This document shows positions 1 to 27,387 of a stretch of DNA of 27,387 bases, piece after piece; the first letter of the stretch is position 1, and each line of letters begins with the position of its first letter. Source of the stretch: a virus. Under the pieces are notes generated by a model. The model saw nothing but the letters and a program-made list of their open reading frames with translations. It was not told the DNA's origin and did no database searches. A program made the position numbers and the translations under genes. The stretch is taken from positions 1 through 27,387 of the IMG/VR virus record IMGVR_UViG_3300042317_000038. The stretch is one strand, 5' to 3'.

Positions 1-364
1 TAGGGTGGTTCATGGGGCGTGATTGTCGCCCCGTAGCCGGCGTCAATGTCACCTCGTTAGCGACAGACTTACGCCGCGGCATATTGTCGCCCCGTAACCG
101 TGACAAAATTATCGTGTAACGGTTGGGTCTTCGGTCATCACGACAATCAGCAGAACCACCGGCCCGCTTTTCCAACCGGACATATCCATGCTTAACCAGC
201 GTGTTCACCGAGCGTTGAACTGTGCGCACACTTATTGAACACTTCATAGCGATTGTCGCTTGGCTTGGCCATGCTTCAGTACCGTCATCGCTCGCGTGGT
301 CAGCGATAACAAGCAAAACCATTTTTTCAGTTGTCGGTAAGTTTGTTTTCCATACTTCCGTCAT
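1..364 (-). CDS. Winged-helix replication-initiator-like protein, 3' end cut by window edge
   Basis: An open frame begins at ATG 364 and runs off the left edge, giving 121 codons without a stop. Residues 14-62 read like the helix-turn-helix of phage replication initiators and RepA/DnaD-type proteins (HTH_36-like): LLVIADHASDDG (17-28), then AWPSQATIA (31-39) and SVRTVQRSVNTLVKHGYV (45-62), followed by a GG turn (69-70) and RPNRYTI (79-85), which resembles the wing. The residues after about 90 are basic and low in hydrophobics, like the linker between a DNA-binding domain and a helicase-loader domain. It overlaps the end of the WhiB-like gene by 38 bp, and no strong ribosome site is visible. 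The family resemblance is by eye; a transcriptional regulator with the same fold is the main alternative. The C-terminal part is not in the window. Confidence 0.72.
   Translation of the reverse strand, partial: MTEVWKTNLPTTEKMVLLVIADHASDDGTEAWPSQATIAMKCSISVRTVQRSVNTLVKHGYVRLEKRAGGSADCRDDRRPNRYTIILSRLRGDNMPRRKSVANEVTLTPATGRQSRPMNHP
14..96. repeat. 14-bp direct repeats and GC hairpin inside the initiator-like gene
   Basis: ATTGTCGCCCCGTA occurs exactly at 22-35 and 83-96 (61 bp apart). The core ATTGTCGC recurs at 252-259, and ATTGTCG occurs on the other strand near 142-148. The first copy also forms an inverted repeat, GGGGCG (14-19) with CGCCCC (27-32) around a 7-nt loop. The two copies lie in different reading frames of the gene, so the repeat is not explained by a protein repeat. 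Iterons within the initiator gene are a known phage origin arrangement (lambda O), so an origin is possible here; this is inference. Confidence 0.5.
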
Positions 365-701
365 TACGCGAATACTCATAGGCCTCCCAAATAGTGTCGT
401 AGGTTATGCCATACTCCTCTAAATCAAAAAGAGCGCGCCTCAATTGAGCCGGATATTTTTTAGGCTCCACTATGGCTTTCCGCTCAAGAGTGGTCATGCC
501 ACCCCAAACTCCATATTGCTCATGACCGAATCCATACGCTAAACAATCGCGTTGAATTGGACACCTTCCACAGATACTTCGCACCGCGTTTATGTACATA
601 TAAGCCCGGACATTCCGTTCTTCTTCCACGGCGTAAAATAAATCTGTATTGAGTCCCCAACATTCGGCTTTATCCCAATCTACTTGTTCGTACCGGGGCA
701 A
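327..701 (-). CDS. WhiB-like Fe-S transcriptional regulator
   Basis: The 124-residue product has the four-cysteine signature of WhiB proteins: C14, then C44-x2-C47-x5-C53. These ligate a [4Fe-4S] cluster. GVWGG (64-68) matches the family's G[VI]WGG turn and is followed by a basic segment and a long C-terminal extension. WhiB proteins bind the sigma factor or DNA and regulate actinobacterial genes; phage copies such as TM4 WhiBTM4 interfere with host WhiB2. The start is a TTG codon at 701, supported by AGGAG seven bases upstream; no in-frame ATG precedes the first cysteine. It overlaps the Cas4-like gene upstream by 22 bp and the initiator-like gene downstream by 38 bp. It is the best evidence for an actinobacterial host. 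Confidence 0.93.
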   Translation of the reverse strand: MPRYEQVDWDKAECWGLNTDLFYAVEEERNVRAYMYINAVRSICGRCPIQRDCLAYGFGHEQYGVWGGMTTLERKAIVEPKKYPAQLRRALFDLEEYGITYDTIWEAYEYSRNDGSMENKLTDN

Positions 702-9290: not shown

Positions 9291-10700
9291 TTACTTTGCA
9301 TATCTGACTATTATTACACCTGAGCCACCAGAACCACCGGTAGAGTTAGAACCGCTACTTCCGGTTCCACCGCCACCGCCACCGCCAGTATTTGCAGTAG
9401 CGCTAGTGCCGTTTGTGACTCCATTACCACCACCATTTCCACCACCGCCGGTGCCACCTGTTCCTTTATTTTGAGTGGTGCGACCGCCTGCTCCACCTCC
9501 ACCGCCAGCAAAATAATAATTGCCGCTAGATAAAACACCCGCACCGGTTGTTGCGCCGCCTGAAATTGAAGTGTAAGAACCAATACCACCATTTCCGCCG
9601 TTGTATGTTCCCGCTCCACCTGTTGAGCCAGCAGCACCAGCACCGCCACCGCCACCACCACCACTACCATTAATTGAGTCTGTAACGGCAAGCGCACCAG
9701 CATTACCTTCTGCCGGTGAGTAACCACCTTCGTTTCCTGTTCCTGCTGTTCCTGCAGTTGTTCTTCCTGAACCAGCGCCTGAACCACCAGCAGTACCATC
9801 CCAAACATTCAATTGACCTTTGCTGTAACCGCCACCGGTAGAAGTAAAGGTTGAAAATCCGCTACCTGAAATAGAACTATTACTACCTTTTGCTCCATCA
9901 CCTTTTGCTGTTCCACCAGCGCCACCTGCGCCAACTGTAACTGTATAAGCAGTTCCGTTTGTAAAACTCTGCGATGTATTAGTTCTATATCCACCAGCGC
10001 CGCCGCCACCGGTACCGGTATCTGAACCACCTTCAGAACTACCAGCACCACCACCACCTGCGACTACAAGATAGTCAGCAGTGATATTGCTTGTCGGCGT
10101 AAATGTTCCTGAAGCAAGGAAGGTGTGGTAGAAGTAGTTAGCATCAGAGGTGATGATTCCGCCAGTAGCCTTTGCGCCATAGGCAGATGAGGTAACGCCA
10201 TACAAGGTGGCTGTGGAGTATTCTACATATTCTGTCGCAATATTATTGGTTAAAGTGACACTAGTTATAGCGGCAGTATTTGACCACAATCCAGCAGTCA
10301 GCCATAAACCATTATCTCCGCTAGTGTTATTTTCACTAACTGTATCAGCGCTATAACTTTTATTGTTAGCAGAAGTGTAATTAGGAATATATATTTCTGT
10401 ATTGCTAAAAGTATTGCTAGTTCCGTTTGCCGAATTGGATACGCCGATACTTCTAGGAATGGAAGTTATAGAACCGACAGTTGTTCCAAAAGCATAAAGT
10501 TGCCTATTAGTTATAGAAGCGGTGCTACCATTAAAAGAGATAAGTGTATGGTCTTGTGTGTCGGCTCTGTCATTTCGGGCAGATAATTTAATTACCAAGT
10601 CAGTATAGGTCTGCGGAATGTTGGTAAATTCAATGCTTGCCGCACCGCCACTGCCGACAGTTACGGTTTGGATCGCTACCATATTTGGATTAGTTGGCAT
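9291..10700 (-). CDS. Glycine-rich tail fibre / adhesin (copy 1)
   Basis: The 469-residue protein has an N-terminal beta domain (1-175; includes IEFTNIPQTYTDLVIKL), a hinge (FYHTFLASGTFTPTS, about 190-205; ADYLVVAGGGGAG) and a long run of polyglycine/Gly-Ser-Thr repeats (about 215-460) ending in SGVIIVRYAK. The hinge-plus-polyglycine layout is that of the Glycine-rich domain family, thought to form polyglycine-II sandwiches in phage receptor-binding proteins. It is adjacent to a second copy with the same plan (10715-12007). Codon-frame stays open over the Gly repeats, whose other frames show long artefactual open stretches. Confidence 0.85.
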   Translation of the reverse strand: MPTNPNMVAIQTVTVGSGGAASIEFTNIPQTYTDLVIKLSARNDRADTQDHTLISFNGSTASITNRQLYAFGTTVGSITSIPRSIGVSNSANGTSNTFSNTEIYIPNYTSANNKSYSADTVSENNTSGDNGLWLTAGLWSNTAAITSVTLTNNIATEYVEYSTATLYGVTSSAYGAKATGGIITSDANYFYHTFLASGTFTPTSNITADYLVVAGGGGAGSSEGGSDTGTGGGGAGGYRTNTSQSFTNGTAYTVTVGAGGAGGTAKGDGAKGSNSSISGSGFSTFTSTGGGYSKGQLNVWDGTAGGSGAGSGRTTAGTAGTGNEGGYSPAEGNAGALAVTDSINGSGGGGGGGAGAAGSTGGAGTYNGGNGGIGSYTSISGGATTGAGVLSSGNYYFAGGGGGAGGRTTQNKGTGGTGGGGNGGGNGVTNGTSATANTGGGGGGGTGSSGSNSTGGSGGSGVIIVRYAK

Positions 10701-10714
10701 TTAGATTTCCTTCC

Positions 10715-12007
10715 TTATACCGCATACCGAATAACAATAATGCCGGAGCCGCCTGCGCCACCAGCGAGAGTGTCGCCACCACCGCCTCCGCCACCGCCAA
10801 GATTGGCAGTTGCATTTGAACCAGCGCCTCTAACAGTTGTTCCACCAGCACCAGCACCGGAAGCATCAGCACCAGCACCGCCGCCAGTAGGAGCATTAAC
10901 AGCGCCACCGCCACCTCCAGCGTAATTAACTGCTGAACCAGTAATTGAATTAGAAGTAGCAGCGCCACCATTTCCACCGGTTGTTGTTGTTGTTGAATTT
11001 TGACCTACCGCAGCAGAACCACCACCACCTGAACCAGCCCCAGGATTTGCCGAAGTTCCGCCGTTATAACCTTCAACGGGTGAATAACTGCCAGCATTAC
11101 CAGCACCGCCAGTTCCACCATTAGCACGACCACCGCCACCGCTACCACCGGAAGCGCCACCAGTATTTGATGAAGAACCACCACCGCCACCGCCTGATGA
11201 TGAAGATGAATTAAATGTTGAGGTAGTTCCACTACCACCCTTATTTGCTCCAGTTGTAGCGCCAGCACCGCCAGCGCCTATCGTTACTGTGTAATTAGTG
11301 CTAGAAGTTAGTGATTGAGAAGTGAAATAACGATAACCACCTGCGCCTCCACCACCACCGGCATCAAATCCACCGCCACCACCACCAGCAACTACTAAGT
11401 AGTCACAGGTAAGAGCAGTTGTCGGAGTGAATGTGCCGCTTGTGCGGAATGTGTGATACCAATAAGTGCCATCGGTAGTAATGCTATCTCCACCGGTAGC
11501 CTTAGCAGTATTGGTAATAGAGGCATTGGCTACGCCGTAGAGGTTGAAGGTTGAGCCAGAAGTAAAAGTATCTCCACCAAGAATATTAAATCTAACTTCA
11601 TTTACAGCAGCAGTACTGCGCCAAAGATTTACTGTTGCTGCTACTCTATTTCCTGGAACTGACGACCTAACAATTGCAGTTTTATTGGTTGTTGTATTGG
11701 AATAACTTTGTATATTGATTATATTATTTCCTCTACCAGTTCCAAGAAAACCAATATTACAGCCACCTGTAGTGATATTAGAATCTCTGTCGGATACCGC
11801 AGCAGAACCAGTGCCCCACATATATGTACTACTATAGTTTGTTCCAGTATCGCCATTAAATCTCATCTGTATTGTTCCAAGAGATGTAGTTGCTGTTCCT
11901 TCTATAACTGCAACCAAATCAGTATAGGTCTGTGGGATGCCACTGAAGGTGACAGATGATTGTGCGCTAGTCAGAGTAACGCTTGCTATTGGTGTATATG
12001 TACTCAT
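10715..12007 (-). CDS. Glycine-rich tail fibre / adhesin (copy 2)
   Basis: The 430-residue protein repeats the plan of its downstream neighbour: N-terminal beta domain (1-165, with FSGIPQTYTDLVAVI at about 21-35), a hinge (YWYHTFRTSGTFTPT; CDYLVVAGGGGGG) and polyglycine repeats to SGIIVIRYAV. The DNA encoding QTYTDL is nearly identical in both copies (about 10593-10619 and 11913-11939), which points to fairly recent duplication or recombination. The N-terminal domains otherwise differ, as would be expected of host-range determinants. Confidence 0.85.
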   Translation of the reverse strand: MSTYTPIASVTLTSAQSSVTFSGIPQTYTDLVAVIEGTATTSLGTIQMRFNGDTGTNYSSTYMWGTGSAAVSDRDSNITTGGCNIGFLGTGRGNNIINIQSYSNTTTNKTAIVRSSVPGNRVAATVNLWRSTAAVNEVRFNILGGDTFTSGSTFNLYGVANASITNTAKATGGDSITTDGTYWYHTFRTSGTFTPTTALTCDYLVVAGGGGGGFDAGGGGGAGGYRYFTSQSLTSSTNYTVTIGAGGAGATTGANKGGSGTTSTFNSSSSSGGGGGGSSSNTGGASGGSGGGGRANGGTGGAGNAGSYSPVEGYNGGTSANPGAGSGGGGSAAVGQNSTTTTTGGNGGAATSNSITGSAVNYAGGGGGAVNAPTGGGAGADASGAGAGGTTVRGAGSNATANLGGGGGGGGDTLAGGAGGSGIIVIRYAV

Positions 12008-24051: not shown

Positions 24052-25797
24052 TTACTTTGATTCGGCTTCAGCGGCGTTTGCGAATTTCTCTGCGAGCGCC
24101 TTGTAGCCTTTAATCAAAAGTGGGTCTGTGGTTGCGTTTGCTTTTGCGCGATAGACAGCGGCTTTTGTCAAATTGTCAGAAACCTTTGTATCTATCGGTT
24201 TGGCGGTTCTCTTTGGACCGCCGGCAACAGCCAAAGACTTAGCAACTGCTAACTCGGATTCCAAGGACGCCGCCTTCGTTTCTGCCGCCTCTTTTGCGGA
24301 CAACAACGAAGCGACCTCAGCCCTAATGGACTCGGTAGCACTCTTGACAGCCTTTTCTACTATTGCTTCTACATCTGCGGAAGCGGGTGCTTCCTCAGAA
24401 ACTTCTGCGTCTGCCGGTTCCTTAACTTCTTCTTCAACTTTTTCCTCGGCAGGAGTTTCAACTACATCACCTTCAGCGGACTTAGGAGTTTCGCCGGGTG
24501 CGTACATTTCAGCGGTCGTGACATGTGAAGGCATGGCAACATTCGCGAAATCATTTGTAGTTGTTGCGCCATGGTCAGCGCCGGGAGTAGCACAACCACA
24601 TTCAAGGCACTTAGATACCTCAGCGGTTTTTTCTACTTCTTCTTTTTCATCATTATCACTTTCAACCGACTTCATATATTTGTCGTAAGCCTTTTCAGCG
24701 GCGTCATTTTCCATGCCGGCTTCTTTACAACGCTTCATGAAATCAGATTTTGATTCACCCTTTTTAGGTTTCATCTCGTCTGAATGTGCGGCGAGTTCAA
24801 TGTTTTCTTCCATTACTTCTCCTTCTGCTTCCTCACCCGCGTACCACGCGAATAGGTGATGAACGGCGGCTAATAGGTGAGAGAGCGAGGCTTCTTCGTT
24901 GTGGCCCTCGCCCATTTCTTCGGCTTCAATTGCGATAAGTTGTGCCAGCGCTTGACGAGCGTTGTCATAAGTTTTCTTATCAAACTTCAAGAGGTCGCCA
25001 CCGGCATACGACTTAGACATGTCAATAATGTCTTGGGCGAGTAAGTCCATGGCACCCCTTTCTGTAACTTCCGATAATTGTAATCTATCGGCCGATTTCT
25101 CGGTCTTTTTCTTGTAGGTACCCCCGCGCTTTTTGTATTCACGGACGACCCAAGCATTAGCAACAGCAGAAGGGTAGACATCAAACTTTTCTTTAGCCTC
25201 ACGCTTTACCCGGTTATACAGTTCCTTGTCAGCCGGCTCAGAGCCACCGCCGCCACGGAGCATACCCTCATAATTTGGCTTCTTGTCTTCTTTCTCAATG
25301 AGTTGTTCAACCTTCCACCACCCGTTTTCACCTTCAGCGGACTTGGCTAGAACCAATTGACAATTTGGGTTAGCAGGACGGTCTACAAGTGAAACCTCAA
25401 CGATTTGGCCGTCAATAATTCTGCCGTTTGCCGCCTTTTGGTCACGAACAACGCGTGGGGATTTAATACCAATACTGAAACCCTTGAGTACGCCAGTATC
25501 AACCTTCTTGACGCTTACAGGGTCTACAACGAGAGCGCGAATATAGTGGCCGTCATTTTTCTTTTCATATTCCTTGGCAACACCGGCCGCGATATTGGAG
25601 TGTTGCTCACGAATGTTGCCGCCGGATTTGAACCAATCAGGCATAGCCCTGTCTAACCAAACCGGGTCACAGATTTGTTGGTCAATATCTAGGGAGTCAT
25701 CTGTTGCCTTGCCATACACCATGAGCGTACCGTCTGCGTTCTTATCAGCCTTAATAATATTAAAGAAGGCGGTGGTCATATCAAGCGTATTGGCCAT
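24052..25797 (-). CDS. Prohead protease fused to scaffold-like C-terminus
   Basis: The 581-residue protein has an N-terminal prohead protease domain (about 1-155): H66 (NIREQHSN), S108 (KGFSIGI) and E134/D139 (VEVSLVDRPANP) fit the U35-type His-Ser catalytic set. A middle segment (about 190-232, KFDVYPSAVANAWVVREYKK) looks like the small phage domain often called DUF5872. After an acidic helical region there is a cysteine-bearing stretch (CLECGCATPGADH) and a coiled coil (about 480-560) that would act as scaffold. Such fusions mature the capsid and are then cut away. It lies directly before the capsid gene, as expected. Confidence 0.87.
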   Translation of the reverse strand: MANTLDMTTAFFNIIKADKNADGTLMVYGKATDDSLDIDQQICDPVWLDRAMPDWFKSGGNIREQHSNIAAGVAKEYEKKNDGHYIRALVVDPVSVKKVDTGVLKGFSIGIKSPRVVRDQKAANGRIIDGQIVEVSLVDRPANPNCQLVLAKSAEGENGWWKVEQLIEKEDKKPNYEGMLRGGGGSEPADKELYNRVKREAKEKFDVYPSAVANAWVVREYKKRGGTYKKKTEKSADRLQLSEVTERGAMDLLAQDIIDMSKSYAGGDLLKFDKKTYDNARQALAQLIAIEAEEMGEGHNEEASLSHLLAAVHHLFAWYAGEEAEGEVMEENIELAAHSDEMKPKKGESKSDFMKRCKEAGMENDAAEKAYDKYMKSVESDNDEKEEVEKTAEVSKCLECGCATPGADHGATTTNDFANVAMPSHVTTAEMYAPGETPKSAEGDVVETPAEEKVEEEVKEPADAEVSEEAPASADVEAIVEKAVKSATESIRAEVASLLSAKEAAETKAASLESELAVAKSLAVAGGPKRTAKPIDTKVSDNLTKAAVYRAKANATTDPLLIKGYKALAEKFANAAEAESK

Positions 25798-25994
25798 TAT
25801 TTTTCTCCTTGTAATGTGGATATAACTTTATCAGGTTTGTAACCCTTCTTGAGGTAAGAGCGGTAGGGTTCAAGAATTTGGTCCTCGCTAGAGGCTAGTT
25901 CAACTGCCTCAATAAAACGATACTTGACTTCAATCGGCATAGGTTGAACCACCTTGGCCATACGCCTTGATAAATCCGGCTCATTTATGTTCAT
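25797..25994 (-). CDS. Small protein between MuF-like and protease genes
   Basis: The 65-residue product is basic and amphipathic (RRMAKVVQPMPIEVKYRFIE, then AVELASSEDQILEPYRSYLK). It overlaps the stop of the MuF gene by 4 bp and ends at the start of the protease. Possibly a capsid-assembly helper; no family recognised. Confidence 0.65.
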   Translation of the reverse strand: MNINEPDLSRRMAKVVQPMPIEVKYRFIEAVELASSEDQILEPYRSYLKKGYKPDKVISTLQGEK

Positions 25995-27387
25995 CGTTTG
26001 ACTATTGCCTTTCCACGATTTAGGACTATGTAATAATTTTCCTCTAAATTGTTTGCGACCATTTGACTCGTAACAACCCTTATACCGTCATATCCTAGAA
26101 GGGTTGCCACCGTACCTTCATCGTCAAGTAATGTTCTCAAATCATGATACTTGGCTTCTTTTTTGGTCCACTCAATCCATATTGGATTATCAAAATAAGT
26201 CATACCAGCGGCCAATGAATCAGCCTTGGCTTTAGCCCTACCGGCCAAGATTAGTTCATCAAGAGCAGTTCGTATGTCTTTGATTTTGTATCTTAAATCC
26301 GTTTGTTTAATAAAATTGGCGCTGTTTGGAATCAACATTTCCATAACATTATTCATGTCACCCTTGGCATAGTTCAAGGCTGTTTGAAGGCTTGTTGATG
26401 TATAAGTTCCGTTACCGTGTACTCCAAACCCGGCATAATGTTTTCCATACTTGTAATCATTTATGAATTCTGCCGCGTTAATGCCTCGTGCGTCTACGAT
26501 ACCTCTAAATACCGGTACGCCCTCTTTTTTGGCTACGAGAGCGTCAAACTCATCAGGACCTAGCACCGTAGGGTCAGCGTTATATCCCTTGACGCGATAA
26601 GCGGCAGACAATCGGTATTCGCCAATACCAATAACATCTGAATCTATTAACTCGCGATAAGTTTCGCTTGTTTCAAATAATTCTCTTTCAGATAATCCGC
26701 TGATAGTTGGCTCAATTGGCATGATGTCATTTATCTCGCCAGTAGGCTCAAAATCAGGAACAACCGGCAATAAAGCGCAACGGCAGTTCGGGTGAACCGG
26801 TGGTTGAGTATCACCGCTCGGGAATGTGGCCCCTACATTTACAACCTTGCCTTCATTGAGTACACACTTATCACAAGGGTCTGATGTCACCCATTCCATT
26901 TGTTCAAGGCCGAATTGTTGGTATCGCTCAATCGTGGCCCGGCTAATTGCTCTATTGGTTTCAGTAATTGCAATTGTGAGCGCCCTCGCCGGGTCACTAA
27001 CGCTATCTTGAATTAGTTTAGCCGCTCTCCTACCCGATAATCCAAGCGCTAAGGCGTCTGCGAGCGCCGTTCCTAGACGGTCGTATCCTGTACGGTCAAT
27101 ACCCCTAATCGTGGCTCCTTGGGCCTCTAAGAGCCGTTGAAATGCCTTTGTAGGTTTAACCAGTAGTGCCGCCGCCGCGTCACCGGGTTTCCAGTTTGCC
27201 CAATCTATGTAATCAGGGTCATCGGCTTTCTTGAGTTCTTTCGCTTGGCGTATAGCGTCATCTGCGGACACAATTCCAAGAGCAAAACCCTCAGCCCAAG
27301 TCCTGCGAAGTGCGGCTATGAGTGCGTCATTGTCAAACGGTACGGAGAGCATGGCCCACGCCCTAGCCCTAGCCCTATCTTGAGCCG
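25991..27387 (-). CDS. MuF-like minor head protein with C-terminal ADP-ribosyltransferase-like domain, 5' partial
   Basis: The frame stays open to the window edge, and ATG 27352 has no ribosome site, so the true start is probably outside. Numbering from that ATG, residues about 60-198 form a MuF domain: ALTIAITETNRAISRATIER (124-143), DPC160DKC163, then HPNCRCALLP (187-196) with H187, C190 and C192. A linker leads to a domain (about 240-451) with R283 (VPVFRG), GNGTYTSTSLQTALNYA (313-329; S319-T320-S321), GYDGIRVV (420-427) and YYIVLNRGKAIV (440-451). That order (Arg, STS, final strand with LNR) matches ART-type toxins fused to MuF proteins in polymorphic toxin systems. The catalytic Glu is not obvious. 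Such a domain may be packaged and injected with the DNA. Confidence 0.82.
   Translation of the reverse strand, partial: AQDRARARAWAMLSVPFDNDALIAALRRTWAEGFALGIVSADDAIRQAKELKKADDPDYIDWANWKPGDAAAALLVKPTKAFQRLLEAQGATIRGIDRTGYDRLGTALADALALGLSGRRAAKLIQDSVSDPARALTIAITETNRAISRATIERYQQFGLEQMEWVTSDPCDKCVLNEGKVVNVGATFPSGDTQPPVHPNCRCALLPVVPDFEPTGEINDIMPIEPTISGLSERELFETSETYRELIDSDVIGIGEYRLSAAYRVKGYNADPTVLGPDEFDALVAKKEGVPVFRGIVDARGINAAEFINDYKYGKHYAGFGVHGNGTYTSTSLQTALNYAKGDMNNVMEMLIPNSANFIKQTDLRYKIKDIRTALDELILAGRAKAKADSLAAGMTYFDNPIWIEWTKKEAKYHDLRTLLDDEGTVATLLGYDGIRVVTSQMVANNLEENYYIVLNRGKAIVKR

What the first reader, a model, noticed from the sequence alone, without database searches (positions are those of the whole stretch)
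25991..27000. Capsid minor head protein carries an ART-like toxin domain
The C-terminal 210 residues carry the arginine (FRG), the STS strand and the YDGI...LNR final strand of ADP-ribosyltransferase-type domains. The MuF domain suggests packaging in the head. If the domain is active it would be an effector injected with phage DNA, modifying a host protein or nucleic acid at infection. ART domains in MuF proteins are known; what is notable here is that the catalytic glutamate is not obvious (E437/E438 lie just upstream of YYIVLNR), so it could be an active variant or a degenerate one.
Basis: partly seen in the sequence, partly recalled or inferred. Interest (0 to 1): 0.62.

Follow-up and report, generated by a model that had tools for sequence, protein, structure and literature searches.

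The report
Swappable phage-head ADP-ribosyltransferase with small partner
A head protein of an uncultured phage (probably of an actinobacterium) ends in an ADP-ribosyltransferase-type enzyme domain of an unusual subfamily that lacks the classic catalytic glutamate, and that domain is exchanged between phages together with a tiny downstream gene, which suggests an injected effector with its own inhibitor protein.

Summary
Window 25991-27387(-) encodes a MuF minor head protein (true N-terminus off the contig) whose last ~200 residues form an ADP-ribosyltransferase (ART) fold: models reach pLDDT 86-89, and nearly all of the best PDB matches of a compact relative are PARP- or diphtheria-type ARTs plus AcrIF11. 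Across 37 homologues R283 and Y317 are invariant and D422 is present in 31. The 'STS' serine is present in 10, E438 in 19, and the usual catalytic-Glu slot is aromatic (Y440; Glu in 1). This resembles the H-Y-D site of ART-PolyVal with His replaced by Arg. The domain is not decaying: dN/dS is 0.13. It moves as a cassette: MuF and protease flanks stay similar while the ART diverges, is lost, or is replaced by an R-S-E ART. A 65-aa gene overlapping the MuF stop travels with it. Among 77 relatives sharing this MuF, 15 have both ART and small gene, 62 have neither, none only one (Fisher p 3e-16). Best reading: a head-carried, injected ART effector with a dedicated inhibitor (immunity protein or chaperone). 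Fold, family, cassette and gene pair are shown computationally; activity, injection and inhibition are inferred.

The parts
25991..27387 (-). MuF minor head protein gene with C-terminal ART domain; 5' end off the contig (ORF from first ATG: 25991-27352, 453 aa)
   Evidence: full-length relatives L003 (512 aa) and L007
26771..27076 (-). MuF domain (residues 93-194)
   Evidence: PF04233 E 9.3e-12; TIGR01641 E 2.3e-10
25994..26587 (-). ART-fold domain (about residues 256-453) with a helical-hairpin insertion
   Evidence: AlphaFold2 pLDDT 86.4; compact relative pLDDT 89.0; Foldseek hits
26504..26506 (-). R283 (FRG), strand 1, invariant 37/37
26402..26404 (-). Y317 (GNGTY), strand 2, invariant 37/37; aligns with the Tyr of GFYFT in ART-PolyVal
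26087..26089 (-). D422 (GYDGI), acidic in 31/37; aligns with GYD/YDG of ART-PolyVal
26039..26044 (-). E437/E438, loop before the last core strand; E438 is Glu in 19/37 and acidic in 23/37; alternative acid, compare the loop acids of AcrIF11
26033..26035 (-). Y440, occupies the usual catalytic-Glu slot; Y/F in 33/37, E in 1/37
26015..26017 (-). R446 of LNR, invariant 37/37
25797..25994 (-). Small downstream gene (65 aa, SR[RK]xA motif), ATGA overlap with the MuF stop; candidate inhibitor/immunity protein or chaperone
25890..26740 (-). Exchange cassette: ART plus the 5' half of the small gene; sharp identity breakpoints on both sides (approximate ends)
24052..25797 (-). Conserved right flank: probable head maturation protease (phrog_3270 E 4e-5; PF19197 stretch)
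   Evidence: 92.5% DNA identity to L008

Best explanation
The C-terminal ~200 residues of this MuF minor head protein are an effector module of the ADP-ribosyltransferase superfamily, in the H-Y-E/H-Y-D (PARP, diphtheria-type, ART-PolyVal) branch rather than the R-S-E branch. The active site is non-canonical: R283 replaces the strand-1 histidine, Y317 is the strand-2 tyrosine, and the acid is D422 or the E437/E438 loop, because the normal Glu slot holds Tyr. The MuF part anchors the protein at the portal inside the head so that the ART enters the cell with the DNA and uses NAD+ to modify a host target early in infection. The overlapping 65-aa gene encodes a partner that binds and silences (or chaperones) the ART while the phage is assembled. 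ART and partner are inherited and exchanged as one toxin/immunity-like cassette on a conserved MuF scaffold. Shown by computation: fold, conservation, purifying selection, cassette exchange, gene pairing. Inferred: NAD+ chemistry, packaging, injection, target, role of the small protein.
For: Fold: pLDDT 86 and 89. For the compact relative, nearly all of the top 50 PDB matches are PARPs; the top ten also include a PE-like toxin (prob 0.98) and AcrIF11 6kyf (prob 0.99). BFVD matches include ART-PolyVal proteins at 7e-5 and 2e-4. Profile-profile with ART-PolyVal gives E 8e-5, aligning GNGTY with GFGFYF and GYDAI with GYDHI. R283, Y317, R446 are 37/37 and D422 31/37. dN/dS 0.13 in the ART. Exchange: MuF dS 0.11 against ART dS 1.10 between window and L003, with sharp breakpoints; L008 has the same MuF (92%) but a PF03496 ART (E 1e-16). 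Small gene: found by group-left-out HMM in 29/30 loci, and in the last one by the full model; 6 of 7 independent whole-record hits lie within 200 nt downstream of an ART; 15/15 against 0/62 in the MuF clade. Precedent: MuF-ART toxin Bxa with a binding immunity protein, Bsi (PMC11699363).
Against: No acid is strictly conserved: D422 is His in 5 of 37 and Gln in 1, and the canonical Glu slot is aromatic, so catalysis is not assured. PDB matches have E about 0.01 and TM about 0.4, and PF18760 is not reached by any member (best E 0.0036). Several ARTs lack the small gene. The small gene is co-transcribed with late genes (inferred from gene order), so it could be a chaperone or structural. Packaging and injection are argued from the MuF fusion only; some ART-small pairs have no recognisable head domain (L044, L057, L062).
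Confidence: 0.58

Rival explanations
1. Canonical R-S-E (Alt/VIP2, PF03496-type) ART with R283, S319-T320-S321 and E437/E438.
For: The letters are present. The same MuF scaffold carries a true PF03496 R-S-E domain in L008 (E 1.1e-16).
Against: No PF03496 match for the window domain. S319 is Ser in only 10/37, S321 in 2/37. No ExE followed by the strand; E438 in 19/37. Fold matches are PARP/diphtheria type.
Confidence: 0.04
2. Catalytically dead ART fold kept for binding NAD+, ADP-ribose or a host partner, or as a structural head part.
For: The usual catalytic Glu is replaced by Tyr/Phe in 33/37; no single acid is invariant.
Against: Invariant R and Y and dN/dS 0.13; exchange with a canonical R-S-E ART at the same place (L008) suggests functional equivalence; a dead domain would not obviously need a linked partner gene.
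Confidence: 0.22
3. The domain is an NAD+ glycohydrolase or phosphorylase (NAD+-depleting) rather than a transferase.
For: ART-fold NADases and phosphorylases exist; PMC9503650 notes that some viral ARTs may be of this kind; an early NAD+ change could counter host defence.
Against: No specific similarity to those families was found; the best structural relatives are transferases.
Confidence: 0.12
4. The small protein is not an inhibitor but a loading chaperone or a structural/regulatory part needed by ART-bearing head proteins.
For: Conserved SR[RK]xA core across very divergent ARTs, unlike fast-diverging immunity proteins; overlap of genes suggests coupled synthesis.
Against: It also follows ARTs with no recognisable head domain (L044, L057, L062) and extra ART copies elsewhere in jumbo-size contigs G201 and G202.
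Confidence: 0.35

Closest known systems
MuF polymorphic toxins (Jamet et al. 2017, PMC5576092); Bxa with Bsi/BAH (PMC11699363)
   Same: MuF N-terminus, exchangeable C-terminal enzyme domain, small gene directly downstream.
   Different: A different ART subfamily (PARP/PolyVal-like; the catalytic Glu E820 reported for Bxa has no counterpart here). The partner family has no significant match in Pfam or PHROGs. Lifestyle of this phage unknown. Not tested for toxicity.
ART-PolyVal (PF18760) / Tox-ART-HYD2 / N4-ART of polyvalent proteins (PMC5512222)
   Same: GxGxY strand-2 tyrosine, GYD aspartate, phage virion context; significant profile-profile similarity.
   Different: Strand-1 His replaced by Arg in every member; all below the PF18760 cut-off.
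AcrIF11 anti-CRISPR ART (PDB 6kyf; PMC12421852)
   Same: Compact phage ART of diphtheria-like fold with atypical residues and loop acids (D115/E116, D146/E147); structural match prob 0.99.
   Different: Stand-alone, not a head protein; His in strand 1; no sequence similarity detected.
Alt/VIP2-type ART (PF03496) on MuF, as in L008
   Same: Occupies the same C-terminal slot on a nearly identical MuF protein.
   Different: R-S-E active site with E-x-E; unrelated sequence; not paired with the small gene.

Membership tests
MuF minor head proteins (PF04233) | Pfam match above gathering score | tested here: met
   46.1 bits against cut-off 29.6, E 9.3e-12
MuF minor head proteins (PF04233) | Position next to the portal gene and head genes | tested here: met
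   L003: large open frame upstream reading as portal, then MuF, small gene, protease (portal reading by inspection); window: protease then phrog_13692 protein
ADP-ribosyltransferase superfamily (fold) | Split beta-sheet ART core | tested here: met
ADP-ribosyltransferase superfamily (fold) | NAD+-dependent activity | not testable with these tools
   needs purified protein
R-S-E ARTs (PF03496, Alt/VIP2) | Pfam match; STS motif; E-x-E | tested here: not met
   no match; S319 10/37; no conserved E-x-E
ART-PolyVal / Tox-ART-HYD2 (PF18760) | Match above gathering score | tested here: not met
   best member E 0.0036, window no hit
ART-PolyVal / Tox-ART-HYD2 (PF18760) | His in strand 1 | tested here: not met
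   Arg 37/37; His in ART-PolyVal members
ART-PolyVal / Tox-ART-HYD2 (PF18760) | Tyr in strand 2 | tested here: met
   Y317 37/37, aligned by hhalign
ART-PolyVal / Tox-ART-HYD2 (PF18760) | Asp in strand 5 | tested here: inconclusive
   D422 aligns with GYD/YDG and is present in 31/37, but which Asp PMC5512222 means could not be checked residue by residue
MuF polymorphic toxins | Conserved MuF with exchangeable C-terminal domain | tested here: met
   several unrelated C-terminal types or none on one MuF clade; L008 swap
MuF polymorphic toxins | Small gene directly downstream | tested here: met
MuF polymorphic toxins | Toxicity neutralised by the small protein | not testable with these tools
   needs co-expression
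MuF polymorphic toxins | Temperate phage | not tested
   partial genome; no integrase search made

The most novel reading that the evidence does not exclude
A previously undescribed phage ART subfamily that works with an Arg-Tyr-(Asp or loop acid) site instead of a glutamate, coupled to a new family of 50-80-aa proteins that are its dedicated inhibitors. The pair is a mobile cassette that phages swap onto MuF, portal and stand-alone carriers.
Probability: 0.4. Interest if true: 0.74.

Novelty: new variant of a known kind. Interest (0 to 1): 0.6.

Why it matters
It defines an ART-fold subfamily in phage heads that lacks the usual catalytic glutamate yet is under strong selection, and it links the domain to one specific small gene family by a clean comparative test (15 with both, 62 with neither, none with one). 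That makes two questions testable with two genes: whether ARTs can work without the classic Glu, and how phages keep injected effectors silent during assembly.

Tried and rejected
Pfam/NCBIfam on the window domain: no hit. Sequence search of PDB with the window or small alignments: only chance-level or biased hits; with the larger alignment a 606-aa entry named 'Diphtheria toxin, C domain' at E 0.0026 over the N-terminal half, in line with the H-Y-E branch but weak. Foldseek with the window domain itself: PARPs and ParT on top but E about 1, probably because of the long helical insertion; solved by folding a compact relative. PF18760 in 195 genomes of one phylum: only two matches, so ART-PolyVal members were taken from phage SecTim467, the RPP1 vRNAP and non-clinical plasmids instead. 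The idea that D422 and the loop acids substitute for each other (36 of 37 have one or the other) was dropped: about 36 are expected by chance. The small alignment's PDB hits are short biased matches and were ignored. No residue-level superposition on PARP or AcrIF11 could be made because model coordinates are not exposed; the statement that Y440 sits in the E988-type slot rests on motif alignment, on the Glu at that place in RPP1 and in L047, and on general knowledge of PARP1.

Full report
WHAT IS THERE. The window is a whole 27,387-base IMG/VR contig. On its minus strand the right-most gene (25991-27352 from the first ATG, frame open to the contig edge) encodes a MuF minor head protein (PF04233 E 9e-12). 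Relatives L003 and L007 show that about 59 N-terminal codons lie off the contig; the large open frame upstream in L003 reads as a portal protein, by inspection. Downstream come a 65-aa gene (25797-25994, ATGA overlap), a probable head maturation protease (24052-25797) and further head and tail genes.

THE C-TERMINAL DOMAIN. Residues 228-453 match no Pfam or NCBIfam family, but homologues exist in dozens of viral contigs, in Cyanophage PSS2, where the same protein also carries a zeta-toxin domain, and in Gordonia phages Phendrix and GodonK. AlphaFold2 on a 17-row alignment gives pLDDT 86.4 for the window domain, with a long helical hairpin inserted in the core. A compact relative (L016, 37 rows) gives pLDDT 89.0. 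Foldseek of the latter against PDB: the best 50 matches are, but for AcrIF11 and the PE-like toxin Jlx, all PARP-family catalytic domains, with probabilities up to 0.99 and E about 0.01. Against viral models the window domain matches ART-PolyVal proteins (7e-5, 2e-4). It is an ART fold of the H-Y-E branch.

ACTIVE SITE. Over 37 homologues R283, Y317 and R446 are invariant, N445 is 36/37, and D422 is acidic in 31 (His in 5). E437 and E438 are Glu in 4 and 19. Y440, where the last core strand begins, is Tyr/Phe in 33 and Glu in one, L047. Profile-profile comparison with genuine ART-PolyVal sequences aligns GNGTY with GFGFYF and GYDAI with GYDHI (E 8e-5). The published ART-PolyVal/Tox-ART-HYD2 site is His (strand 1), Tyr (strand 2), Asp (strand 5) (PMC5512222), and the prototype RPP1 vRNAP reads YHGT / GLFFT / GYDGAIV. 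Hence R-Y-D (or loop acid), with His replaced by Arg, not R-S-E. Loop acids before the last strand are functional in AcrIF11 (D115; D146/E147; PMC12421852), so E437/E438 remain possible. Which acid acts is unresolved.

NOT DEGENERATE, AND MOBILE. Against L003 the MuF part has dS 0.11 and the ART dS 1.10 with dN/dS 0.13: strong purifying selection, and a domain that came from elsewhere than its neighbours. Identity drops sharply at about 26,740 and recovers at about 25,890, inside the small gene, against L003, L007 and L008. L008 keeps the MuF (92%) and the protease flank (92.5% DNA) but carries a canonical PF03496 R-S-E ART (E 1e-16) and a different 38-aa downstream frame.

THE SMALL GENE. A 50-80-aa frame with an SR[RK]xA core follows the ART in nearly all relatives, often with a 4-base overlap. 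With its own sequence group left out of the model, it is the best frame of its locus in 29 of 30 loci; in the 30th (L057) a second copy behind a second ART scores higher, and the first is found by the full model. In 1.57 Mb of whole phage records, 19 of 20 matches lie within 200 nt downstream of an ART on the same strand; of the 7 not used for the model (or near-copies of it), 6 do so, among them extra pairs elsewhere in G201 (327 kb) and G202 (277 kb). In 77 loci sharing this MuF scaffold, 15 have ART and small gene, 62 have neither, none has one alone (Fisher p 2.8e-16). The 15 fall into four MuF groups that each also contain ART-less members, for example L113 against L120 at 84.5% MuF identity. 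So the small gene goes with the ART, not with MuF. The pair also occurs where the ART is fused to a portal protein (L054) or stands without a recognisable head domain (L044, L057, L062). The small proteins have no significant Pfam or PHROG match. Limits: the loci are not phylogenetically independent, several ARTs have no small gene, and a few of the 15 ART loci contributed to the model.

MECHANISM. Best reading: the MuF part places the ART inside the head, it enters with the DNA and modifies a host target with NAD+, and the small protein keeps it silent (or helps it fold) in the producing cell. Precedents: T4 Alt (PMC9503650); MuF polymorphic toxins followed by small genes (PMC5576092); the MuF-ART toxin Bxa, neutralised by a binding protein, Bsi (PMC11699363). 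Activity, injection and inhibition are inferred here.

VERDICT. A new ART subfamily and a new partner family within the known class of MuF polymorphic effectors: a new variant of a known kind.

Noticed in passing
window 327-701 (-): WhiB-like transcription factor (PF02467 E 6.8e-14), which points to an actinobacterial host.
   Followed up: partly
window 24052-25797 (-): Probable head maturation protease carrying an inserted stretch of DUF5872 (PF19197 E 3e-8) and a long acidic, low-complexity C-terminal half.
   Followed up: no
window 9291-10700 and 10715-12007 (-): Two tandem related proteins with long glycine-rich C-terminal halves, probably tail or host-contact proteins.
   Followed up: no
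L057 (G201) and L028 (G205): G201 (327 kb) holds six copies of this ART, five of them in tandem, with three small genes; the 42-kb contig G205 has an array of at least five ARTs with one weak small-gene match 1.3 kb upstream.
   Followed up: partly
L053:58-3648: One protein with MuF, a PF03496 R-S-E ART and this second ART type at the C-terminus.
   Followed up: no
L037:1-3651: Portal fragment, 2'-5' RNA ligase (2H) domain, MuF and this ART in one protein.
   Followed up: no
L101-L180: The same MuF scaffold carries several unrelated C-terminal domains or only a 16-20-aa tail; several types are uncharacterised, for example L126/L141, L111, L154, L171.
   Followed up: no
window 25797-25890 (-): The last ~12 codons of the small gene are kept even in L008, where the rest is replaced; they contain the AGGAG ribosome-binding site of the protease gene.
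   Followed up: partly
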